DNA of 14,353 nt from Candidatus Desantisiibacteriota bacterium (GCA_016209155.1 JACQWU010000269.1:1-14353), one strand, 5' to 3'; shown: positions 1 through 12,238, counted from the stretch's first letter. Made by a program: numbers and translations. Notes: generated by a model not told the origin, from the letters alone.

Positions 1-124
1 CTTCATTACTTTTTTCTCCTTGGGTAAATCCTACTATATCAGTAAATATTACAGTATGATTAATTTTATTAAATTTTTCTTTATCTCCGAGAATAAAATG
101 ATCATTAATTTTACCTTTTGACAT
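1..124 (-). CDS. class III adenylate/guanylate cyclase, N-terminal fragment
   Basis: This is the first 41 codons of a gene that runs off the left edge. It starts at ATG 124-122, with AAGAAAGGAG at 131-140 on the minus strand as a good ribosome site 6 nt upstream. The peptide begins MSKGKINDHF and reaches HTVIFTDIVGFTQGEKSNE. The block VIFTDIVGFT is the opening signature of the class III nucleotidyl cyclase catalytic domain. Its Asp (about residue 30) is one of the two metal-binding aspartates that act in ATP or GTP cyclisation. The domain lies almost at the N-terminus, so there is no N-terminal sensor or membrane anchor; any partner domain would be C-terminal. cAMP versus cGMP specificity cannot be read from this fragment. 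The family call is secure, the full architecture unknown. Confidence 0.85.
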   Translation of the reverse strand, partial: MSKGKINDHFILGDKEKFNKINHTVIFTDIVGFTQGEKSNE

Positions 125-140
125 CTTGCACTCCTTTCTT

Positions 141-612
141 AATATTTATTTTTGATGCTTATTTTATTGTTCACTATAATCGTTGGTCTAACCCTATAAA
201 TAAAAGACAGCTAAACACCTCCTCTTTAAATAAATTTATAATACGAAAAATTGGAAGGGGTAAAACACTGTGTCAAATTTGTACATAATATCATTATAGC
301 TGATAATATACCTTTTTTCAAATTTTTATAATATTAGCAAAATTTGTTGCTATTTTAATAATTTGTTTTTAGTTTCGAACTTCTACTATGATATGCTGCG
401 GTATTATCCTTAATGTTTATTTATTATTTTGGTGGCTATTCAAAATATAACAAATATGTTGGAAATTTTGATAATATTTTGAAATAAATATTTTCCACAT
501 TACTTCCATTTTTTTATCTCTCCCCTCAACTTTACCTCTCTTTTCACCTTTATCCCTTTGCCCTAAACTTAAACCAGTTCTTTAAAACTAAAACAGAAAG
601 GAAGGTGAAAAA
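141..612. other. divergent intergenic region with a G-free pyrimidine-rich leader
   Basis: About 470 bp separate the minus-strand cyclase from the plus-strand cassette starting at 613. No ORF with coding character is visible. The left part carries the minus-strand promoter candidate. A weaker plus-strand possibility is TTGTAC (279-284) and GATAAT (302-307), spaced 17 nt. Positions 482-559 contain no G at all on the plus strand and are mostly C and T. If transcribed, this would be an unstructured C-over-G-rich RNA of the kind bound by Rho or CsrA/Hfq-type factors. The region ends in the ribosome site GGAAGGTG (600-607) for the gene at 613. Confidence 0.5.
293..321 (-). promoter_or_regulatory. 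candidate sigma-70 promoter for the cyclase gene
   Basis: On the minus strand TTGAAA (321-316) and TATAAT (298-293) are separated by exactly 17 nt. The -10 is a perfect consensus and the -35 matches at four of six positions. Transcription would start near 286 and give a leader of about 160 nt before the cyclase ATG. An imperfect dyad TATCA/TGATA (289-293 and 301-305) flanks and overlaps the -10 and could be an operator. AT-rich sequence produces such matches by chance, so confidence is moderate. Confidence 0.45.
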
Positions 613-825
613 ATGTACAGTCCTAAAATTGCAGAAGAATTAATACCGGAAATATATCGTATCAGCAAATCAAAAGGCAAGCCAATGACTCATGTTGTTA
701 ATGAAATCATTGGGAACGCTCTTTATTCAAAAGAGCGTAAAAATCAGAAGAAAGGAGAAACAGCACATGCAATTGCAACCCTTAATTCAGGAATTGGAAA
801 ACCAAAAAGCGCAGAAGTGGGATAA
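613..825 (+). CDS. small ribbon-helix-helix-like protein
   Basis: A 70-residue protein starting at ATG 613 with GGAAGGTG just upstream. Residues 2-38 (YSPKIAEELIPEIYRISKSK, then GKPMTHVVNEIIGNALY) have the pattern of a ribbon-helix-helix DNA-binding or accessory domain: a short strand, a helix, a turn with a conserved Pro/Thr, then the second helix with VNEII. The remaining 30 residues are basic and polar and look disordered. The gene overlaps the next gene by 59 nt (767-825) in another frame, so the two are translationally linked. As the first gene of the cassette it may be its autoregulator or a small accessory protein. The fold assignment is by pattern only; the specific function is unknown. 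Confidence 0.6.
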   Translation: MYSPKIAEELIPEIYRISKSKGKPMTHVVNEIIGNALYSKERKNQKKGETAHAIATLNSGIGKPKSAEVG

Positions 826-1762
826 GAAGATTTTAAGCAGAGAAGTTAAAATGATTGAAGAAAAACCATGTTTAGCTTTAGGAGCAGAAAGTCCTTATGA
901 ATTAACAGCATCCTGCCATAATCAATTAGCGGATAAACTGGAGATTCCGACTAAGTATTACCAAAAAATGATGATTTCAGATCCAAAACTTCTGGCAACC
1001 AATGTTAATACCTGGCTTAACCGTCAAGAAGACGAGTCATTCTTTATTCGCGGTATAGCAAACAGAATCAGAGCAGTATTGTCTCCAAGTTATAGAGTAA
1101 TTGATAATTACAATGTCTTGATGTGTTCTCTTACTGAAATGCAAGCGCAGAATATTGAAATTGAAGATTGTCATTTATCAGAGACAGGAATGTTTGTAAA
1201 AATCAGAAGCAACCAGATGAAAGATTTTGTCAGGCACAAAGGCGATGAAATAATTGGCGGTATTCTTGTCTCCAACTCTGAAACCGGTCATGGAGCAGTC
1301 AATATCAAACCCAGAATTTTTAGAGTTCAATGTACCAATGGCATGGTATTGGAAAAAATTGCTTCCAGACAAATTCATTTGGGAAATGGAAATTATACAG
1401 ATGCGGAATTATTAGACGATCAGGTATATTTGTCTATCCGCCAATCCATCAGAGAAACATTCAATCAATTTGGCAGAATTGTGATTATGCTGAGAGAATC
1501 AACAGAAATTTCCATTAATGAGCCAGTGAAAATAATTAATAATGTGGTCAGGGAATACCGGATGACTGAAGAACAAAAAGAACAAATTATTATGTCTTTT
1601 GGCATGGAAAGAGATAAAACCAAATATGGCATTGCTAATGCCATAACCAACGCTGCTCAATCCCAGAATCACTTTGAAAAAGCTTTGGAAATGGAAAGAA
1701 TTGGCGGCAGAATCATTGTAATGAATAATCAAAGATTCAAGCAATTGGAATATGCGGCATAA
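767..1762 (+). CDS. DUF932 phage/plasmid-like protein
   Basis: A 331-residue protein. I choose ATG 767 (MQLQPLIQELENQ) because AAGGAG at 752-757 lies 9 nt upstream; the longer reading from 692 lies inside the preceding gene without a good site. It matches DUF932 (phage/plasmid-like TIGR03299 type). Recognisable blocks are the substrate-like start WDKKILSREVKMIEE, the central IRAVLSPSYRVIDNYNV, and GGILVSNSETGHGAVNIKP followed by FRVQCTNGMVLEK. The C-terminal third is helical. DUF932 proteins are found on phages, plasmids and integrated elements, often near recombination genes; their biochemical role is not established. No signal peptide or membrane segment is seen, so it is cytoplasmic. Its neighbours (RHH protein upstream, nuclease downstream) point to DNA metabolism of a mobile element. 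The family call is confident, the role unknown. Confidence 0.85.
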   Translation: MQLQPLIQELENQKAQKWDKKILSREVKMIEEKPCLALGAESPYELTASCHNQLADKLEIPTKYYQKMMISDPKLLATNVNTWLNRQEDESFFIRGIANRIRAVLSPSYRVIDNYNVLMCSLTEMQAQNIEIEDCHLSETGMFVKIRSNQMKDFVRHKGDEIIGGILVSNSETGHGAVNIKPRIFRVQCTNGMVLEKIASRQIHLGNGNYTDAELLDDQVYLSIRQSIRETFNQFGRIVIMLRESTEISINEPVKIINNVVREYRMTEEQKEQIIMSFGMERDKTKYGIANAITNAAQSQNHFEKALEMERIGGRIIVMNNQRFKQLEYAA

Positions 1763-1789: not shown

Positions 1790-2338
1790 ATGAGAATACT
1801 TGCGAATTACGGATATAAGAATAACGGGGATAGTTATTCCGTGACATTTGAAACAACCGGCGATGTGCCAATAGAAAAAGCTTCATCTACTGTAGATGAT
1901 TTATTCAAGCTGGCAAAAGAAGCGATTCAAAGGCAGATTTCTGAAAAAGAAACCGATCCATTAAGAATTGATCCTTCAAAAGATGTTTCCCCTGAAAGTG
2001 ATAATAGCAATCATTCTTATCAAAAAAATAGAGGGAATAACGGAAATAGTAAAAATGGGGAAAATAGGGATAGCAATGGTAAAAACAATGAAATGAAAAT
2101 GACCACTAATCAGAAAAAATTTCTATACAGACTATTGTATTTCAACAAAAAAATGTCCGGCGAAGAAGCCACCGCGTATTTAAAGGAAGAATTTAAAGTG
2201 AGGCTTGTAAATGACATCCCTTGTTCTCAGGCAGACATCTTTATCAAGAAAATCCTGAAAGAAGCAGAGAATCGAGGTGGCGGCAATGGTTCGACTAAAC
2301 TCACCAGAAATGGATCATATCAGCGTCTGTCAAATTAA
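1790..2338 (+). CDS. two-domain hypothetical protein, C-terminal short helical module found in phage recombination proteins
   Basis: A 182-residue protein with ATG 1790 and GAAGGTG upstream. Three parts are visible. Residues 1-55 (MRILANYGYKNNGDSYSVTF onward) form a small alpha/beta domain. Residues 56-100 are an Asn/Ser/Lys-rich, low-complexity linker (NRGNNGNSKNGENRDSNGKN). Residues 103-162 (TTNQKKFLYRLLYFNKK onward, ending around CSQADIFIKKILKEAE) resemble the small helical module T-x-x-Q-x3-L-x2-L ... A-s-x2-I-x2-L seen at the C-termini of phage ssDNA-annealing and related proteins. The disordered linker plus C-terminal module is reminiscent of an ssDNA-binding or annealing accessory factor, but no SSB or RecT core is recognisable. 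It ends inside the start of the nuclease gene (overlap about 53 nt). Function is inferred only from context. Confidence 0.65.
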   Translation: MRILANYGYKNNGDSYSVTFETTGDVPIEKASSTVDDLFKLAKEAIQRQISEKETDPLRIDPSKDVSPESDNSNHSYQKNRGNNGNSKNGENRDSNGKNNEMKMTTNQKKFLYRLLYFNKKMSGEEATAYLKEEFKVRLVNDIPCSQADIFIKKILKEAENRGGGNGSTKLTRNGSYQRLSN

Positions 2339-3071
2339 CTTGTACCAGCAGTGCAGTTTGAAATATAAATTCAGGTATATTGATAAAATTCCATCTGCTT
2401 TTATCTCTGTTAATCTTGCTTTTGGCAGCGCGATTCATTCCAGCTTAGCTTGGCTTCATGAAGAAATTGTAAAAGGAAATATGCCAACCCTTGAAGAATT
2501 CCAGCAGGTATTTTCCATTGAATGGTATAGTCAAACAATTGAGGAAAACATTAATTACAATGGTTGCAATTGGACGGAATTATTAGAAAAAGGCAAAGCA
2601 ATGCTGGCGCTGTATCATGAGAATCCGGCTAAAGAAATACAAGCGATAGAATCCGGCTTTATTATTCCCATTATCAATCCGGCAACCGGCGAACAATTGG
2701 ACACCCCATTAAAAGGTATTTTTGATTTAGTTCTAAGTAGCGGCACGATCGTAGAATTCAAAACAGCCGGTAAAACTTTTGATCTTATGCTTTTGCATAA
2801 AATGCTTCAGCTTACCGCTTACAGTTACGCCTTTGAATATCTGTACAAACAAAAACCTTCCAATCTTAAGCTGATTGCTTTCATTAAAAACAAAAATCCA
2901 AAAATGGAGCAGTGGGAAACAACAAGAAACGAAAAGGATTACATTCAATTTTTTAATATCACAAAAAATATAATCACTGGTATCAAAAATAAAATCTTTT
3001 TTCCTATTTACACTTATCTTTGCAAAGACTGCGAATATCTTGAAGAATGCAAAAAGTGGGAAGGGAAATAA
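2286..3071 (+). CDS. PD-(D/E)XK nuclease with predicted 4Fe-4S cluster (Cas4/AddB-type, stand-alone)
   Basis: A 261-residue protein from ATG 2286, chosen over GTG 2277 because GAGGTGG (2274-2280) sits 5 nt before this ATG. The N-terminal motif (SVCQINLYQQCSLKYKFRYI) is the usual opening of PDDEXK_1/RecB-like nucleases and supplies the first cluster cysteine, C23. H51 (FGSAIHSS), D147 (GIFDLVL), E157 and K159 (VEFKTAG) make the catalytic H...D...ExK set that binds the metal and cuts DNA. C246, C249 and C255 (CKDCEYLEEC) complete the four-cysteine iron staple seen in Cas4, AddB and Dna2. There is no helicase domain, so this is a single-domain exonuclease. Cas genes are absent, so a CRISPR adaptation role is not supported; recombination end-processing fits the cassette better. 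It is the last gene before the terminator at 3076. Confidence in the family is high. Confidence 0.88.
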   Translation: MVRLNSPEMDHISVCQINLYQQCSLKYKFRYIDKIPSAFISVNLAFGSAIHSSLAWLHEEIVKGNMPTLEEFQQVFSIEWYSQTIEENINYNGCNWTELLEKGKAMLALYHENPAKEIQAIESGFIIPIINPATGEQLDTPLKGIFDLVLSSGTIVEFKTAGKTFDLMLLHKMLQLTAYSYAFEYLYKQKPSNLKLIAFIKNKNPKMEQWETTRNEKDYIQFFNITKNIITGIKNKIFFPIYTYLCKDCEYLEECKKWEGK

Positions 3072-3075
3072 GGTT

Positions 3076-3107
3076 AAGGAAGTAGTAAAAAACACTACTT
3101 CCTTTTT
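3076..3107 (+). terminator. rho-independent terminator of the DUF932/nuclease cassette
   Basis: A perfect 11-bp stem, AAGGAAGTAGT (3076-3086) with ACTACTTCCTT (3094-3104), with a 7-nt loop (AAAAAAC) and a T run at 3103-3107. It begins 5 nt after the nuclease stop codon. It cleanly separates the cassette from the defence operon. Confidence 0.88.
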
Positions 3108-3113
3108 AATTCG

Positions 3114-3144
3114 AAGTGAATCTAAAAGTGAATCTAAAAGTGGA
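3114..3144 (+). repeat. 12-bp tandem repeat abutting the gaj promoter
   Basis: AAGTGAATCTAA occurs at 3114-3125 and again, exactly, at 3126-3137. A third copy begins AAGTGGA at 3138-3144 and breaks off inside the -35 hexamer TGGACA (3141-3146). The phase of 12 bp and the overlap with the promoter suggest a cooperative regulator-binding site, though replication slippage is the simpler explanation. Confidence 0.7.
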
Positions 3145-3169
3145 CAGCTCAAGTCATACCTGATATAAT
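3141..3169 (+). promoter_or_regulatory. strong sigma-70 promoter of the Gabija operon
   Basis: The -35 is TGGACA (3141-3146, one mismatch to consensus). A 17-nt spacer follows, then a perfect -10 TATAAT (3164-3169) preceded by TG one base away (3161-3162), which is the extended -10 TGnTATAAT. Transcription would begin near 3176, giving a leader of about 57 nt before gajA, whose ribosome site GAGGAT is at 3222-3227. Another TATAAT at 3195-3200 has no good -35. Confidence 0.75.
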
Positions 3170-3232
3170 TTTATAAACTATAAGTCGTATGCTGTATAAT
3201 TTATATAATTATTATCTCATTGAGGATCTTTT

Positions 3233-4915
3233 ATGTATTTATCTAAGATATCTATTAAAGGTTATAAAGGAATTAGAGATTTAGAAGTAGAATTCAATCC
3301 CAATATAAATATTATAATTGGAGAAAATGGAAGCTGTAAATCAGCCCTTATTGATTCAATCAGATTACTATACAATTTGGGGAATCAACAAAAGGATATT
3401 TTTGTATCAGAGGATGATTTTTATTATGATAAAGATTCTAAAAAGACTCTTACTAAAATTGAAATATCATATCAATTTAGGGATTTGTCTGAAGCTCAAA
3501 AAGGTGCTTATTACGAGTTCATGGTTCTTGCAGAGGATCCAAAACATGATTATATTAATATAGGTTTAAGCTATGAATATAGAGAAAACCGCTATCCCGA
3601 TTTTAGTTATTATACCGGTGCTGTTGATGGCCAAAAAGCAGAATTCAAAACATTTGAATTATTTCAGCATTATTATTTAGGAGCATTAAGAGATAGTACA
3701 AAAGACCTTTTGAGAATTAAAGGAAACATATTGGGTGGTTTGATTAAAAGGAGTATTGATAGAAATGGAACAAGTAAAAATTTTGAACAAATAATATCTA
3801 CAGCAAACAATGAATTGTTAAAACAAAAAGAAGTCTTAGATGCCAGAGAAAATATTAATCAGAATCTTAAAAAAATTTATAAACAATATATAGAAAATCA
3901 AGTGGGTTTATTGATAGAGCCGTCTAAGCTTGACTATATTGTCAATGTAATAAAACCATATCTTCCATTTAGTTTAAAAGAATTAGCAGGAGATGGGTTG
4001 CAATTATGCCAAAATAGTTTGGGTTTTAATAATTTAATTTATATTGCCACAATACTTGGAGATATTGATCAGAGAATAAAAGATGAGCCATTAACTCATT
4101 ATGCTCTGTTAATCGAGGAGCCGGAAGCACATTTGCATCCACAACTTCAATTAAGTCTTTATAGTTTTTTGAAGGAAACAAACAAGTGCGATAACAGTCA
4201 ATTGTTTATAACCACTCACTCTCCCACATTAACATCTAAAGTGCCTTTTGAAAATTTAATACTTTTAGATAAAAAATCTTATAGGATGAGTAATTGTTTT
4301 GCTGGCAGAGAAGATGAAAAGATAATTGAAGACACAAAAAAACAAAAGGAGCTAAAAGAACAGGATTTTAAAATTAAAGAAAAAATGCTTGAGAGATATA
4401 TTGATGTGACAAGGTCTCAATTGTTTTATGCAAAGAAGATTCTATTAGTTGAAGGAATATCGGAAGAATTATTAATTCCTGTTTTTTGTAAATTAGATAA
4501 TTTTAAGCTTGAAGATTACAGAATTGAATTGGTAAATGTACAAGGTACATCATTTTATCCTTTTTTATATTTATTTAATTCGAAAGATGAAAAGAAAGTA
4601 ATCCCAAAGAAAGTAGCTGTTTTAACTGATGATGATAGATTTACGGAGTCAAAAAAACCAGAATATTCTTTTAAAAATCTTATTGAGGATAATTATTCTA
4701 AATTAGATGAACTATATAATCAATTGATTGCCAAACATGAATCAAGCAGAGAGGAAGAGAGATATAAGCTCGCTATATTATTATGGAAAGCAATGCCGTC
4801 AAAGGCTGTTTTTGCTCAAGATTTTTCATTTTATATATGCGAAAATTTTCAAGAAGCAAAAAAAACTTTAATAATTCCGCCTTATATCTTAGAAGCTTTT
4901 CAACACCTTAAATAA
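3233..4915 (+). CDS. gajA: GajA, OLD-family ATPase/TOPRIM nuclease of a Gabija defence system
   Basis: A 560-residue protein from ATG 3233 with GAGGAT 5 nt upstream, close to the usual GajA length (about 580). The N-terminal ABC/SMC-type ATPase has Walker A GENGSCKS (residues 30-37), Walker B LLIEEPEAHLHP (E295/E296) and the H-switch TTHSP (327-331). The C-terminal TOPRIM nuclease has the catalytic Glu in LLVEGISEE (E407), the acidic trio TDDDR (D466-D468) and the late conserved Lys in PSKAVFA (K524). In characterised Gabija systems GajA nicks specific DNA sequences and is inhibited by ATP-level nucleotides; loss of nucleotides during infection releases it. An oddity is that the third glycine of Walker A is Cys35 (codon TGT; one base from GGT). 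The pairing with a UvrD-like helicase 13 bp downstream makes GajA the best call; a generic OLD nuclease is the alternative. Confidence 0.9.
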   Translation: MYLSKISIKGYKGIRDLEVEFNPNINIIIGENGSCKSALIDSIRLLYNLGNQQKDIFVSEDDFYYDKDSKKTLTKIEISYQFRDLSEAQKGAYYEFMVLAEDPKHDYINIGLSYEYRENRYPDFSYYTGAVDGQKAEFKTFELFQHYYLGALRDSTKDLLRIKGNILGGLIKRSIDRNGTSKNFEQIISTANNELLKQKEVLDARENINQNLKKIYKQYIENQVGLLIEPSKLDYIVNVIKPYLPFSLKELAGDGLQLCQNSLGFNNLIYIATILGDIDQRIKDEPLTHYALLIEEPEAHLHPQLQLSLYSFLKETNKCDNSQLFITTHSPTLTSKVPFENLILLDKKSYRMSNCFAGREDEKIIEDTKKQKELKEQDFKIKEKMLERYIDVTRSQLFYAKKILLVEGISEELLIPVFCKLDNFKLEDYRIELVNVQGTSFYPFLYLFNSKDEKKVIPKKVAVLTDDDRFTESKKPEYSFKNLIEDNYSKLDELYNQLIAKHESSREEERYKLAILLWKAMPSKAVFAQDFSFYICENFQEAKKTLIIPPYILEAFQHLK

Positions 4916-4928
4916 GGTTAGTTTACTT

Positions 4929-6656
4929 ATGATTTTTGAAAAGAATCATGAAAACGAAAAATACATATCTTCCAGAGGCAAAATTATTTTAGATGCCTGT
5001 CCTGGCAGTGGAAAAACGTCCACTATTGCTTATAAATTAAATGAATTAGTAAAAGAATGCGAGCAAAAATATGGAAATTTTTCAGGAATTGCATGTCTGT
5101 CTTTTACCAATGTAGCTAAAGATGAAATAACTCAAAAATATAAAGAATTTGTTGGAACATCAGTCAGTTATCCACATTCTATTTCAACAATTGATAACTT
5201 TATTAATAAATATATTACTCTCCCTTTTTATTATTTAATTAATAATTCATGCATAAGACCCAAGATAATTGATGACGAGGAATTTATAGATAAAGCATGG
5301 ATGGATCGATGGAACAAAAAGTATAAAACAAATTCTGGTCAACTAATATGTTTTTCATATCCAGCCAGTTCAATTAATTTTGAATTTAAAGATGGTTATT
5401 CTTCAAGTGGACATAAACCGGATTTTTCAAAGGTTGATAAAAATATATTTAATGAATATTGTAAAAATTTAAAAAATTGGCAGATTAATAAAGGATTATT
5501 AAAATCTTCCGATTCTACATTTATTGCATTTCAAATTTTAAATAATTATCCAAGAATTGCCTCATGGTTAACTAAAAAATTTCCTGTCATTATTATTGAT
5601 GAAGCACAAGACACTTCCGAAATACAGCATGCAATATTTGATAAATTGATAGAACATGGACTTGAAAATCTTGAATTAGTCGGGGATCCATATCAATGTT
5701 TGTATGAATGGAGGGACGCTAAACCAAATTTATTTTATAAAAAAAATATTGATACCTGTTTACCTTTAAATACTTGTAGGCGTTCAACTCAAAAAATAGT
5801 TGATTGTTACAGTCTTTTAAGATCAGATAATATTCCGAAGATTAAATCAATAAATAACGAAAAAGATATACCGATACAAATATATACTTATAGTATTAAT
5901 AATGAAAAAGAAATTATTGATAAATATATTAACAATTGCAAAATGTTTTCAAATAATCACATAGTAGTTAGGGGGAAAAAATTAAAAAATAAATTAATTG
6001 GTAATATCGATGAAGATATCGAGCCATGGAAACATTACGCTCCCTATGAAATTTTGATAGCCAAAAATGAACTCAATGGAAAAAAAATTAAAGAATCTGT
6101 CCAACGTATACATTCATTATTGGCATTAGTACAAAATCCAAAAGCAGAGTATCATGATATAAAAGAATATGAAAAACAATTAAAACAAGATAATATGCGT
6201 AATGCTCTAATTATTGAATTTCTTAAAAATATTCCCTCATATGACCTACAATTAAGTGACTGGACAATAAAAACAGAAAAATATTTTATTGATACATTTA
6301 AATTAAAAGTGAAAATAGAGTTTGACCTAAAACAAGGTAAGTGGAAAAAGAAACATGATAGTAAAATTAAAGATATGTTTACTGTTAATTCCATTCTCCC
6401 TATCCCTATTTCAACAATTCATCAAGTAAAAGGCATGACGTTTGATTCACTTCTTCTAATGCTAAGCGAAGATAGTAAAGGGCAAAATATTTCAATTAAG
6501 GATATTTATAAACCAACTGATTTCCCAAATGAAAAACAGAGGTTAATTTATGTATCGATGTCTAGACCAAAATATCTTTTAGCAATTGGGATTCCTGATA
6601 CCATTAAGAAAGATTTAATTTATAGTACATTTGGAAAAGAAATTGAAATCATATGA
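4929..6656 (+). CDS. gajB: GajB, UvrD/Rep-like superfamily 1 helicase of Gabija
   Basis: A 575-residue protein starting 13 bp after gajA, so almost surely co-transcribed; the ribosome site is weak (AAGG near the gajA stop). SF1 helicase motifs occur in order: Walker A ACPGSGKTST (K29), motif Ia CLSFTNVAKDEI, motif II IIIDEAQDTSE (D224, E225), motif III VGDPYQCLYEW, motif IV NTCRRS, motif V STIHQVKGMTFD (495-506), and motif VI YVSMSRPK with Arg546 as the arginine finger. Motif VI usually reads YVAxTRA; the version here is divergent but keeps the Arg. In Gabija, GajB is activated by DNA termini or ssDNA and hydrolyses (d)NTPs, which frees GajA to cut. It is longer than the roughly 490-residue reference GajB; the extra length seems to lie between motifs IV and V (roughly residues 300-490). 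High confidence in the fold, good confidence in the Gabija role from linkage. Confidence 0.9.
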   Translation: MIFEKNHENEKYISSRGKIILDACPGSGKTSTIAYKLNELVKECEQKYGNFSGIACLSFTNVAKDEITQKYKEFVGTSVSYPHSISTIDNFINKYITLPFYYLINNSCIRPKIIDDEEFIDKAWMDRWNKKYKTNSGQLICFSYPASSINFEFKDGYSSSGHKPDFSKVDKNIFNEYCKNLKNWQINKGLLKSSDSTFIAFQILNNYPRIASWLTKKFPVIIIDEAQDTSEIQHAIFDKLIEHGLENLELVGDPYQCLYEWRDAKPNLFYKKNIDTCLPLNTCRRSTQKIVDCYSLLRSDNIPKIKSINNEKDIPIQIYTYSINNEKEIIDKYINNCKMFSNNHIVVRGKKLKNKLIGNIDEDIEPWKHYAPYEILIAKNELNGKKIKESVQRIHSLLALVQNPKAEYHDIKEYEKQLKQDNMRNALIIEFLKNIPSYDLQLSDWTIKTEKYFIDTFKLKVKIEFDLKQGKWKKKHDSKIKDMFTVNSILPIPISTIHQVKGMTFDSLLLMLSEDSKGQNISIKDIYKPTDFPNEKQRLIYVSMSRPKYLLAIGIPDTIKKDLIYSTFGKEIEII

Positions 6657-6746
6657 TTTGCTACGTATTCCGGCTACAATCCGAGGTGTTGGGATTACCT
6701 GTTAAACTCATGGATCTAAAATTTTCAGTAAAAGTCAGGAGTGAAA

Positions 6747-8063
6747 ATGTATTCAGCTTTGAGTTCTCTGGATAATAGAGAGCTATCTACAATAATATGG
6801 TTTGTAATATTGATTATTTGGGTGTCTAAAGATGCTAAAGTAAGAAACTCAATTAAAGAATTTATTAAAGCTTCTTTGAAAAGATACATTATTATTTCCT
6901 TTATATTCCTTTTTGCATATACGTTAGTATCAACATGGTTGTTAAGTCATATCGGTTTATGGGATATTTCGCAAATTAAAAATACTATTTTTTGGTTCTT
7001 TTTAGTAGCAGCTGCATCGTTCTTGGAACTATCAAATATTGCTAACAACGATGAATATTTTAAGACTTCGATTAAAGACAATTTAAAAATTATTGTTGTA
7101 ATTGAATTTATTTTAAATTTTTATACATTTAGTTTTATTGCTGAGTTAATTTTTGTTCCGTTCCTTGTGATAATTGGCGTAACGTTAGCAGTATCCCAAA
7201 ATAAAGAAAAGAATAAAGCAGTAGCAAAATTTTTAAACTATATTACTAATCTTGTTGCTGTATTTATTATTATTTTTACGATTTATAAACTAATAACAGA
7301 ATTTAATGAAATCGCTAAAAAACAAACATTAATTGATTTTATTGTTCCAACAATACTTTCAATATTATTATTACCATACATATATATCCAATATGTTTAT
7401 ATTAACTACGATAAGATATTTTTTCGATTAAAATTTTTAATTAAAGATAAAATTTTATTTGTATACACGATGAAACAAGCGATAATCTGTTTTCATCTAA
7501 AAATAATACAACTAAAAAGGTGGGTAAATGCTCTCCATTATCAAAATATTAATTCTAAGTCTGATATTGATAGATCAATTGAAGAAATTTATAAACGTAT
7601 ATCTGAAGCAAAAAGTCCACCAATTGTTCCGGAAGAACTTGGATGGTCTCCATATAAAGCTACAGATTTCCTTAAAAGCGAAGGATTGAAAACAAATTTT
7701 TACAAGAAGTCCTTTGATAACATATGGTTTGCTGATTCTTCTTGTCTTGACGTAGATGATGAACTTATACTGAGCTCCGTTGTTTTTTGTTTGGAAGGTG
7801 ATAGCGTGGCTGTAAAATTTTTAAAATTAGAGATGAATATATTTAATAAAGAAAAATTAGAAGCACCACATCAACTTTTGTTGAAAATTGCATCCCAATT
7901 GTTCGAACAAGCAATTGGGAGTAATATTTCCGCTCAAGTATCCTCTGCAATAATAAAAGGAGGGAATATACAAGAGATTATTAAATCGAAGCTCGTGAAA
8001 GTTGTTACTAAAAATTTGAATAGTAATGTCTATATGATTATTTTTTCAATCGAAATCATTTGA
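6747..8063 (+). CDS. polytopic membrane protein of unknown function, third gene of the Gabija locus
   Basis: A 438-residue protein. I take ATG 6747 because AGGAG (6737-6741) is 5 nt upstream; the GTG at 6741 lies inside that site. The N-terminal half has about six or seven hydrophobic stretches (approximately residues 13-27, 46-68, 79-95, 113-127, 128-146, 165-185 and 200-220). The first is preceded by the conserved-looking NRELSTIIWF. The C-terminal half (about 260-438) is soluble and likely cytosolic. It contains ELGWSPYKATDFLKSEGL, then an alternating strand/helix pattern (VDDELILSSVVFCLEGDSVA), with no catalytic motif I recognise. The gene follows gajB by 90 bp on the same strand with no terminator between, so co-transcription is plausible. 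It could be an accessory membrane sensor or effector, or an unrelated passenger of the defence island. Confidence 0.7.
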   Translation: MYSALSSLDNRELSTIIWFVILIIWVSKDAKVRNSIKEFIKASLKRYIIISFIFLFAYTLVSTWLLSHIGLWDISQIKNTIFWFFLVAAASFLELSNIANNDEYFKTSIKDNLKIIVVIEFILNFYTFSFIAELIFVPFLVIIGVTLAVSQNKEKNKAVAKFLNYITNLVAVFIIIFTIYKLITEFNEIAKKQTLIDFIVPTILSILLLPYIYIQYVYINYDKIFFRLKFLIKDKILFVYTMKQAIICFHLKIIQLKRWVNALHYQNINSKSDIDRSIEEIYKRISEAKSPPIVPEELGWSPYKATDFLKSEGLKTNFYKKSFDNIWFADSSCLDVDDELILSSVVFCLEGDSVAVKFLKLEMNIFNKEKLEAPHQLLLKIASQLFEQAIGSNISAQVSSAIIKGGNIQEIIKSKLVKVVTKNLNSNVYMIIFSIEII

Positions 8064-9769: not shown

Positions 9770-9982
9770 AATAGCAAATTATCAAAAACGCTATAAGACA
9801 GGTAATTTTGTTTGAATAAGCAACAAACGCTAATATTACCGATTTGCGCATTTTTTTTAATGTGTTCACAAGAATACCGCTCGTTGGGAATGAAGTCAAA
9901 TCCGCTCAATTTTTTATGACTTATCCCCACCCTACCCTTCTTTTTTATCCTTCTGGATAATTTTATCTCTCTTATAAAAATC
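9770..9982. other. non-coding stretch upstream of the recombinase module
   Basis: About 210 bp without a convincing gene. Two short minus-strand readings exist (up to 72 codons), but they lack ribosome sites and family signals and overlap each other. The stretch holds the minus-strand promoter candidate at 9871-9899. For large serine recombinases the attachment site is often beside the 5' end of the gene, so this is a logical place to look for it; no clear dyad core was found by eye. Confidence 0.4.
9871..9899 (-). promoter_or_regulatory. candidate promoter for the small ORF and recombinase
   Basis: On the minus strand TTGACT (9899-9894) is followed after exactly 17 nt by TATTCT (9876-9871). 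The -35 matches consensus at five of six positions and the -10 at four of six. Transcription would start near 9864, about 125 nt before the ATG at 9739. Confidence 0.4.
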
Positions 9983-10019
9983 ATCCCTTTTGTTAAAATT
10001 TAACAGGAGGGATTTTTTT
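9983..10019 (+). terminator. strong hairpin with T-tract, possible bidirectional terminator
   Basis: ATCCCTTTTGTTAAA (9983-9997) pairs with TTTAACAGGAGGGAT (9999-10013) over 15 positions, two of them G-U. A seven-T run follows at 10013-10019. On the other side a run of A (9976-9980) gives a T tract on the minus strand, so it could stop transcription both ways and insulate the recombinase unit from the xre unit. Confidence 0.6.
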
Positions 10020-10024
10020 ATTTT

Positions 10025-10075
10025 ATCCGCTCCTGATAATATCCTTCCGAATTTATTTAAAATCAGGAGCGGGAT
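10025..10075. repeat. inverted repeat with 24-bp spacer
   Basis: ATCCGCTCCTGAT (10025-10037) and ATCAGGAGCGGGAT (10062-10075) are inverted copies with one bulged base, separated by 24 AT-rich bp. There is no T tract. It could be a regulator dyad, a recombinase site or a weak hairpin; it lies between two other hairpins. Confidence 0.6.
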
Positions 10076-10145
10076 TAATTAATATTTTGATCTTTTTGGT
10101 ATTGTCTCTCTTCGAGGGCATGCCTGCTTGCTATCAGGAGGGATA

Positions 10146-10172: not shown

Positions 10173-10202
10173 AAATAATTGGAGGGGTCAAACAAAATTA
10201 TT

Positions 10203-10643
10203 ATGGTTCTACAAAACTCACCACAAGTGGTTCTACTAAGTTCCGTTCGACAAGCTCATGACAAGTCACCACAAGTGGCTCAACGCAACTCGCTGCAAAT
10301 GGCAGATTTTATTAATAGCATCCGGATCTTGCGTCAAAAGAGAGAGTATAAACAAAAAGAGTTGGCGTATATTTTAAACAAAAAATCATCGCTTGTAAGC
10401 AAGTGGGAAAAAGGAATTACCTTCCCAAATTTAGAAAACGCTTTTAAATTAGCCATTGCGCTCTCTACCCCGGTAGAGTTTGTTTTCAAAGAACTTTTCA
10501 ATTCTCTAAAAGTAGAAATAATGCCTCGCAAAGATTATGTTTGTCAAAAGATTGTTAGAAACAAGGAAAATGGTTCGATAAGCTCACCACAAGATGGATT
10601 TAGTGAGTCTAATGGTGATAATACCATTGATACTGTAAAATAA
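10203..10643 (+). CDS. XRE-family helix-turn-helix regulator with repeat-derived termini
   Basis: I use ATG 10203, though GGAGGGG is 15 nt away. A TTG at 10179 overlaps the site, and the conserved part starts only at ATG 10299 (MADFINSIRILRQKREYKQ). That core has the XRE fold: IRILRQKREYKQKELAYILN, then the recognition helix KKSSLVSKWEKGITFPNLEN and the packing helix FKLAIALSTPVEFVFKELF. Such proteins bind operator DNA as dimers. The first 32 residues (from 10203) are encoded by the repeats at 10217-10278. The tail after about residue 115 is encoded by another copy at 10572-10597 and is polar and likely disordered. Direct neighbours are the hairpin leader and the RuvC-like gene, which may be co-transcribed. 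Targets are unknown; autoregulation is typical of the family. Confidence 0.75.
   Translation: MVLQNSPQVVLLSSVRQAHDKSPQVAQRNSLQMADFINSIRILRQKREYKQKELAYILNKKSSLVSKWEKGITFPNLENAFKLAIALSTPVEFVFKELFNSLKVEIMPRKDYVCQKIVRNKENGSISSPQDGFSESNGDNTIDTVK
10217..10278 (+). repeat. interspersed repeat cluster in the 5' part of the XRE gene
   Basis: TCACCACAAGTGG occurs exactly at 10218-10230 and 10266-10278 (48 bp apart), with GTTCGACAAGCTC at 10245-10257 between them. The sequence is richer in G and C than the surroundings. Its termini contain the small dyad CCAC..GTGG. Confidence 0.75.
10572..10597 (+). repeat. third copy of the interspersed repeat, 3' part of the XRE gene
   Basis: GTTCGATAAGCTC (10573-10585) differs at one base from the copy at 10245-10257 and runs directly into TCACCACAAG (10584-10593), the start of the 13-mer found twice upstream. 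It is in the same orientation, so the XRE core is bracketed by direct repeats. Confidence 0.7.
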
Positions 10644-11443: not shown

Positions 11444-12238
11444 ATGGAAAACAAAAAAGAAGATACCTCTGCAATATTTTTCCAAAAAGATGACAAACTA
11501 TTATATATTACAGGAATAATTGGAGTTGCAATATCTTTTGCTGATTTCATTGGAATTTTAGATAATTTTTTATGGATAAAAAATAGAATTCCTCAACTGA
11601 TTTTATTGCTTTTGGCAACAACAGTTTTATATTTGAGTAAGGCTTTAAAAAGAATAGAAAATAAAATAGAAATTACCGCCTTATATAATTTAACAAAACC
11701 TGATGTTATTGTATTTAAAGGATTAACAGAGGCGTATAATTATATTTCTAATAAAATTATAAATGCTAAAAAAAGTATAGACGATATTACATGGGCTGCC
11801 TATACAGGTCATAGAACAAAAGAAGAACAAGAAGCTTACAATAATTATGTAAAAACAATTGAGAGAGTATGCAAAAAGGGGACTATCAGCTACAGAGAAA
11901 TTGCAAGTCTTGCAGATAAACATTATTTTACACGTTCATTTAATCTGTTAGAACATTATAGTTACCATTTAGCTTACCATAATTTATCATCACTAACTGT
12001 ACCTTTAATATCATATATTATTATTGACAATGAAGAAGTTATTATTGGATTTTATAAAGTACCTGGTCAAAAAGAACCTTTAGAAGGGATTAAATATATG
12101 AACATTTGCAACCCTGTTCTCGTTAAATTTTTTAAAGATTATTACGATTGTATTTGGAACGATGCTGAGAAATTAAAAGAATCTACCGATATAAATATGC
12201 AAAAAATTAATGAAATTAAAGTTAAATTGGGAGCATAG
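11444..12238 (+). CDS. two-TM membrane protein with possible phospholipase-D-like domain
   Basis: A 264-residue protein with a very good start (AAGGAGG at 11430-11436, 7 nt before ATG). Two hydrophobic segments, about residues 19-40 (YITGIIGVAISFADFIGIL) and 48-67 (PQLILLLLATTVLYLSKAL), anchor it; a short coiled stretch follows (KRIENKIE). Residues 85-235 have a strand/helix order reminiscent of the PLD fold: YISNKIINAKKSIDDITWAA, then HYSYHLAYHN, then PLISYIIIDNEEVIIGFY and FKDYYDCIWNDAEKL. The HxKxxxxD catalytic motif is not present, so enzymatic activity is unlikely; PLD-like pseudoenzymes of this layout can act as sensors. The gene stands alone between a promoter/leader and an AT hairpin. 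The fold call is tentative. Confidence 0.6.
   Translation: MENKKEDTSAIFFQKDDKLLYITGIIGVAISFADFIGILDNFLWIKNRIPQLILLLLATTVLYLSKALKRIENKIEITALYNLTKPDVIVFKGLTEAYNYISNKIINAKKSIDDITWAAYTGHRTKEEQEAYNNYVKTIERVCKKGTISYREIASLADKHYFTRSFNLLEHYSYHLAYHNLSSLTVPLISYIIIDNEEVIIGFYKVPGQKEPLEGIKYMNICNPVLVKFFKDYYDCIWNDAEKLKESTDINMQKINEIKVKLGA

What the first reader, a model, noticed from the sequence alone, without database searches (positions are those of the whole stretch)
3141..6656. Complete Gabija defence pair under its own near-consensus promoter
GajA has both an ATPase and a TOPRIM set of residues and GajB has all SF1 motifs, with 13 bp between them. A TGGACA-17-TGATATAAT promoter lies upstream and a terminator seals it from the left. 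If the host is a Patescibacterium, as I infer, this is a defence system in a lineage with very small genomes.
Basis: partly seen in the sequence, partly recalled or inferred. Interest (0 to 1): 0.6.

Follow-up and report, generated by a model that had tools for sequence, protein, structure and literature searches.

The report
Gabija pair with broken nuclease gene

Summary
The pair is Gabija: gajA (3233-4915) and gajB (4929-6656), 13 nt apart, hit PADLOC GajA and GajB at E=3e-234 and 1e-109. Thirteen close relatives (54-62% GajA identity, mostly Bacteroidota) carry the same two-gene unit. GajB has all the SF1 motifs checked. The terminator and an 11/12 extended -10 promoter-like site are present.

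"Complete" is wrong. GajA lacks a 71-75-residue block (junction after nt 4750, R506|E507) present in all 13 relatives. The block holds the last Toprim strand and the TxE metal-B motif, equivalent to B. cereus GajA D511/D513; D511A abolishes cleavage. Among 55 other complete GajA/OLD-like frames read, no Gabija-type one has this gap. Outside it GajA is well conserved, and no repeat near the breakpoints would explain a misassembly. Best reading: a recent in-frame deletion made GajA nuclease-defective beside an intact GajB. A second Gabija locus in the same bin (contig C316) also has a truncated gajA and an intact gajB.

Patescibacteria is not supported: the bin is 3.08 Mb at 79% completeness, encodes uL30, and its phylum has four held genomes (2.4-3.1 Mb). 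The locus lies beside mobile-element-type genes. Known system, degraded component; low interest.

The parts
3076..3104 (.). Bidirectional intrinsic-terminator-like hairpin separating the upstream PD-(D/E)XK gene from gajA
   Evidence: 11-12 pair stem with flanking A/T tracts on both strands; 4 terminator-like sites found in 4 kb against 1.3 expected
3141..3169 (+). Extended -10 promoter-like site TGGACA-17-TGATATAAT
   Evidence: 11 of 12 with TG, best on the plus strand; promoter-like sites as a whole are no more frequent than in shuffles
3233..4915 (+). gajA (560 aa): OLD-family ATPase + Toprim protein with an internal deletion; GAGG ribosome-binding site at 3222-3225
   Evidence: PADLOC GajA PDLC00083 E=3.3e-234, aligned to profile 1-510 of 639; profile 579-637 matched separately at 4739-4915, so about 68 profile positions are missing. 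Pfam AAA_15 and OLD-like_TOPRIM
3320..3343 (+). GajA Walker A, GENGSCKS (aa 30-37)
   Evidence: conserved in all close homologues
4451..4465 (+). Toprim glutamates E407 (LVEG) and E411, equivalent to B. cereus GajA E379/E383
   Evidence: correspondence from PMC10822852
4628..4636 (+). Toprim DxD, D466/D468, equivalent to B. cereus GajA D432/D434
4748..4753 (+). Junction of the in-frame deletion (R506|E507): 71-75 residues with the KT(F/L)E motif are missing relative to 13 homologues
4802..4804 (+). K524 (SKAVFAQ), equivalent to the catalytic lysine K541 of B. cereus GajA / K562 of BpOLD
4929..6656 (+). gajB (575 aa): UvrD-like SF1 helicase, full length, all motifs checked present
   Evidence: PDLC00138 E=1.1e-109 over 11-563
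692..1762 (+). DUF932 (phage/plasmid-type) gene upstream; part of the mobile-element-like context
   Evidence: a decayed copy lies on contig C28 of the same bin
2277..3071 (+). PD-(D/E)XK nuclease (PDDEXK_1, phage exonuclease-like)
8170..9597 (-). Large serine recombinase / integrase (resolvase, Recombinase and Zn-ribbon domains)
   Evidence: phrog_95 integrase E=1e-73

Best explanation
This is a genuine two-gene Gabija locus of the PADLOC PDLC00083/PDLC00138 type, whose close known relatives are mainly in Bacteroidota, sitting next to mobile-element-type genes. Its gajA has recently suffered an in-frame deletion of about 72 codons. The deletion removes the last Toprim strand, the first helices of the helical domain and the TxE motif that binds metal B. 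GajB is intact. SHOWN: the gene pair, the homology, the deletion relative to every close homologue, and conservation elsewhere. INFERRED: that the deletion is real in the organism and that the protein cannot cut DNA processively. If so, the ring-forming ATPase half and the GajB helicase may still be made, but GajA cannot carry out the cleavage that underlies Gabija defence, so the system is probably inactive or nearly so. An intact Gabija of this type would work by GajA nicking/cleaving DNA within the GajA4-GajB4 ring under ATPase/nucleotide control, with GajB proposed to engage DNA ends.
For: Gabija identity: (13 close relatives, all gajA+gajB adjacent). Deletion: profile matched in two pieces, 1-510 and 579-637; 71-75 residues missing against all 13; window longest core gap 71; others 0-2; all other Gabija-type complete frames carry T and E. 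Role of the missing motif: BcGajA D511A abolishes cleavage (PMC8136825); D511/D513 align with BpOLD T506/E508, the metal-B ligands (PMC10822852; PMC6755086); BpOLD lacking 505-577 is impaired in both nicking and cleavage. Recent event: 0 of 39 Toprim and 3 of 118 ATPase invariant positions violated, with a terminal branch no longer than those of comparable relatives. Real rather than misassembled: no shared word over 7 nt near the breakpoints in homologues and no second copy of the missing segment in the bin. AlphaFold with the same 12 sequences gives the full-length relative's Toprim/helical part (from about residue 450) pLDDT about 71-96 but the window's about 22-45, while the first 140 residues score alike.
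Against: Raw reads were not available, so an assembly or minority-strain artefact is not excluded. Single metal-B substitutions in BpOLD had no discernible effect on cleavage, and loss of one metal site still allowed nicking (PMC6755086), so residual activity is possible. The AlphaFold alignment was shallow and the window model poor overall. The intact reading frame and intact gajB would also fit a working variant.
Confidence: 0.62

Rival explanations
1. The deletion is an assembly artefact or comes from a minority strain in the metagenome; the organism has an ordinary, intact Gabija system.
For: The source is a fragmented bin (352 contigs, 79% complete). Outside the gap GajA is well conserved. 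A false join keeps the frame one time in three. A second gajA in the bin is also broken, which could point to a general assembly problem.
Against: A false join normally needs a shared word at the breakpoints; homologues share at most 7 nt there. The missing segment is not found elsewhere in the bin.
Confidence: 0.22
2. A working Gabija variant with a reduced nuclease: GajA uses metal A plus K524 for nicking only, or acts as a regulated ATPase platform while GajB or a host nuclease does the damage.
For: Frame and all remaining catalytic residues are kept. gajB is intact. In BpOLD one metal site still allows nicking.
Against: No other Gabija-type frame read has this form. The deletion takes structural elements as well as ligands, and the comparable BpOLD truncation impairs nicking too. 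BcGajA D511A is inactive.
Confidence: 0.1
3. A complete, functional Gabija pair in a Patescibacterium, as first read.
For: Both profiles hit strongly.
Against: Active-site motif missing. Bin 3.08 Mb, uL30 present, phylum of four held genomes. The contig's composition fits the bin, and it shares 91%-identical DNA with another contig of the bin.
Confidence: 0.03

Closest known systems
Gabija (GajAB), B. cereus VD045 type system
   Same: Two adjacent genes: OLD-family ATPase-Toprim protein and UvrD-like SF1 helicase; Walker A, Toprim E/E, DxD and lysine kept; GajB motifs kept
   Different: GajA lacks the segment with D511/D513; overall sequence is distant (VD045 GajA was found only by profile)
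GajA/GajB pairs of Bacteroidota (e.g. L039 Bacteroidetes MAG JACPRZ010000064, L047 Flavobacterium cauense) and of Paenibacillus sp. Cedars plasmid NZ_CP020864
   Same: 54-62% (GajA) and 42-45% (GajB) identity, same gene order and spacing
   Different: Their GajA is 624-643 aa with an intact KT(F/L)E segment; the window's is 560 aa
Class 2 OLD nucleases (BpOLD, XccOLD)
   Same: Toprim plus helical domain, helicase gene downstream; profile and fold matches
   Different: The window protein lacks the equivalent of T506/E508 and much of the helical domain before K562

Membership tests
Gabija | GajA profile (ATPase + OLD-type Toprim) | tested here: met
   PDLC00083 E=3.3e-234; AAA_15 and OLD-like_TOPRIM above cut-off
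Gabija | GajB profile, SF1 UvrD-like helicase directly downstream | tested here: met
   PDLC00138 E=1.1e-109 over nearly the whole length; 13 nt after gajA
Gabija | ATPase motifs of GajA (Walker A, EEPE, conserved His) | tested here: met
Gabija | Complete Toprim active site (E379, E383, D432, D434, D511, D513, K541 equivalents) | tested here: not met
   E407, E411, D466, D468, K524 present; D511/D513 equivalents (TxE) deleted. A member by descent, but not shown to be functional
Gabija | SF1 motifs of GajB | tested here: met
   motifs I, Ia, II, III, IV, V, VI found by pattern
Gabija | GajA4-GajB4 complex, DNA cleavage, phage protection | not testable with these tools
   Needs expression and assay
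Class 2 OLD nuclease | Two-metal site with ligands from Toprim and helical domains | tested here: not met
   Metal-B ligands T506/E508 equivalents absent
Patescibacteria host | Very small genome (about 1 Mb) and lack of ribosomal protein uL30 | tested here: not met
   Bin 3.08 Mb at 78.8% completeness; rpmD at G000:C83 above cut-off (71.6 bits); only three other held genomes in the phylum. The defining features are from general knowledge

The most novel reading that the evidence does not exclude
A naturally occurring Gabija variant that keeps GajB and a one-metal or nuclease-free GajA and still works, for example by nicking only or by recruiting another nuclease; a second Gabija locus in the same bin also keeps gajB beside a truncated gajA.
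Probability: 0.08. Interest if true: 0.5.

Novelty: new member of a known kind. Interest (0 to 1): 0.2.

Why it matters
It shows that two strong profile hits in the right order do not prove a working defence system: a profile-based scan would be expected to count this locus as Gabija although its nuclease lacks half of the metal-B site. If the deletion is real, the two Gabija loci of this bin, each with a damaged gajA and an intact gajB, make it possible to ask whether gajB is kept without an active GajA.

Tried and rejected
Scanned genome contigs with the single GajA sequence: no relative; the two-sequence alignment then found 12 close ones. Two AlphaFold jobs: the window model is too poor for a fold search (pLDDT 43), so only the relative's model was searched, and the residue mapping rests on alignments and published correspondences. 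Searched viral contigs for the exact junction: none. Searched the bin for the missing segment: none. Looked for direct repeats that could explain a misassembly: none over 7 nt. Tested relaxed constraint in GajA and GajB: none seen. Tested the GGTTCGACAAGCTCACC repeat as a binning mark: it occurs (with one mismatch) only in the window contig within the bin, and is abundant in one unrelated genome, so it is not informative. Sampling 386 genomes found only one other strong GajA hit.

Full report
What was claimed.

What is there. Two ORFs stand at the stated places: 3233-4915 (560 aa) and 4929-6656 (575 aa), with 13 nt between them. PADLOC profiles give GajA PDLC00083 E=3.3e-234 and GajB PDLC00138 E=1.1e-109. 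Pfam gives AAA_15 and OLD-like_TOPRIM for the first and UvrD-helicase for the second. GajB shows motifs I, Ia, II, III, IV, V and VI and solved GajB structures are among its matches. The terminator hairpin at 3076-3104 is near perfect on both strands. The promoter-like site at 3141-3169 matches 11 of 12 with an extended -10 and is the best on the plus strand, but promoter-like matches as a class are no more frequent than in shuffled sequence (29 against 26.1 +/- 5.0), so it is plausible rather than demonstrated.

Relatives. The closest named relatives found are 12 loci, all Bacteroidota by record title (Flavobacterium, Gillisia, Kordia, Paludibacter and unclassified Bacteroidetes/Flavobacteriia bins), and one Paenibacillus plasmid. 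All 13 carry gajA of 624-643 aa followed at once by gajB of 575-610 aa. The window is therefore Gabija by descent and by gene order.

The gap in GajA. The GajA profile matches the window in two pieces, 1-510 and 579-637 of 639. Alignment with the 13 relatives shows one block of 71-75 residues missing between R506 and E507, in frame, at nt 4750/4751. Over columns shared by the family, the window's longest gap is 71; in the other sequences it is 0-2. The block holds the KT(F/L)E motif. Among 55 other complete GajA/OLD-like frames read here, every Gabija-type one keeps T and E at these positions; the exceptions (L011, L117, L121, L124, L126, L129, L130) are divergent OLD/AAA relatives at under 25% identity, several of which have D in place of T but keep E, and a few of which may be misaligned.

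Why it matters for function. In B. cereus GajA the active site is E379, E383, D432, D434, D511, D513 and K541; D511/D513 superpose on BpOLD T506/E508 (PMC10822852). BpOLD E508 binds metal B directly and T506 through water (PMC6755086). BcGajA E379A, D511A and K541A are each inactive (PMC8136825). In BpOLD single metal-ligand changes had no discernible effect, and loss of one metal site left nicking, but removal of residues 505-577 impaired nicking and cleavage. The window deletion is of that size and covers the start of that region; it also takes a strand that the model of the intact relative L039 places in the Toprim part (residues 513-518). The window keeps E407, E411, D466, D468 and K524. 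With the same 12-sequence alignment, the relative's Toprim/helical part (from about residue 450) is modelled at pLDDT about 71-96 and the window's at about 22-45, while the first 140 residues are alike. This is supportive only, because the alignment is shallow. The relative's model matches solved GajA and OLD structures.

Recent, old or artefact? Outside the gap there is no sign of decay: 0 of 39 Toprim and 3 of 118 ATPase invariant positions are violated, GajB is conserved to the same degree as in comparably distant relatives, and branch lengths are ordinary. A long-dead gene would look worse, and a long-established non-nuclease variant would not be expected to keep every other catalytic residue. 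So the deletion is either recent or not real. A false assembly join usually needs a repeated word; near the breakpoints homologues share at most 7 nt, and the missing segment is not elsewhere in the bin. I favour a recent real deletion, with an artefact as the main rival.

A second damaged Gabija in the same bin. Contig C316 carries, just after radC, only the C-terminal part of another GajA type (202 aa, PDLC00069 positions 480-685 of 687) followed by an intact GajB (578 aa, PDLC00119 E=5.5e-224). Its remnant keeps the DxD, TFE and lysine regions but lacks the ATPase half and the Toprim glutamate region. Both gajA genes of the bin are thus damaged beside intact gajB genes. Two cases are too few for a conclusion.

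Host and setting. The window is a whole contig (C202) of a 3.08 Mb bin, 78.8% complete. Of 97 other genomes sampled as relatives only three share its phylum, at 2.4-2.7 Mb, and the bin encodes uL30 above cut-off, a ribosomal protein that Patescibacteria lack (general knowledge). The contig's tetranucleotide profile and flanking G+C fit the bin (correlation 0.98; flanks 0.33-0.34 against mostly 0.32-0.37; gajAB itself 0.28). It shares 91%-identical DNA at two places (483-1338 and 9921-10130) with bin contig C28, where the DUF932 gene is broken and the stretch between the shared blocks is different. Neighbouring genes are of mobile-element type: DUF932, a PD-(D/E)XK nuclease, a large serine recombinase (phrog_95), a phage-type repressor and a RuvC-like resolvase. 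The most economical view is a Gabija pair acquired on or beside a mobile element, in a bacterium of a little-sampled phylum that is not Patescibacteria. The phylum could not be named with these tools.

Verdict. A known system, correctly recognised, but not complete: GajA lacks part of its active site and the pair is probably not functional.

Noticed in passing
G000:C316:9204-11650 (locus L060): Second Gabija locus in the same bin: 5'-truncated gajA remnant (202 aa, PDLC00069 480-685) after radC, with intact gajB (PDLC00119 E=5.5e-224).
   Followed up: partly
G000:C28:2961-3817 and 80-287 (locus L168) against window 483-1338 and 9921-10130: 91%-identical DNA shared with the window contig; the C28 copy of the DUF932 gene is broken by stops, and the cargo between the shared blocks differs (a 341-aa gene and a UPF0175/DUF3368 pair).
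   Followed up: partly
L168:3898-4269: TIR-domain protein (PADLOC PDC-S66 E=1.6e-60, ThsB-like E=6e-37) beside a 247-aa gene of unknown function and a HerA/TrwB-like ATPase fragment at the contig end.
   Followed up: no
window 2-124, minus strand: Start of a gene cut by the contig end, MSKGKINDHFILGDKEKFNKINHTVIFTDIVGFTQG..., by eye like the start of a class III nucleotide cyclase; no Pfam match to the 41-aa fragment.
   Followed up: partly
window 6741-8063: 440-aa protein that looks membrane-bound, directly downstream of gajB, with no match in PADLOC, NCBIfam or PHROGs and only a weak DUF637 match in Pfam.
   Followed up: no
window 11444-12238: 264-aa protein, apparently with N-terminal membrane helices, without significant family match, between a RuvC-like gene and an M24 peptidase.
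   Followed up: no
window 3116-3146: Tandem 12-nt repeat GTGAATCTAAAA running into the -35 hexamer of gajA, a possible operator.
   Followed up: no
window 10179-10643: HTH repressor gene whose 5' part contains GGTTCGACAAGCTCACC-like repeat units, a repeat abundant in one unrelated genome (G034, 42 copies) but not elsewhere in this bin.
   Followed up: partly
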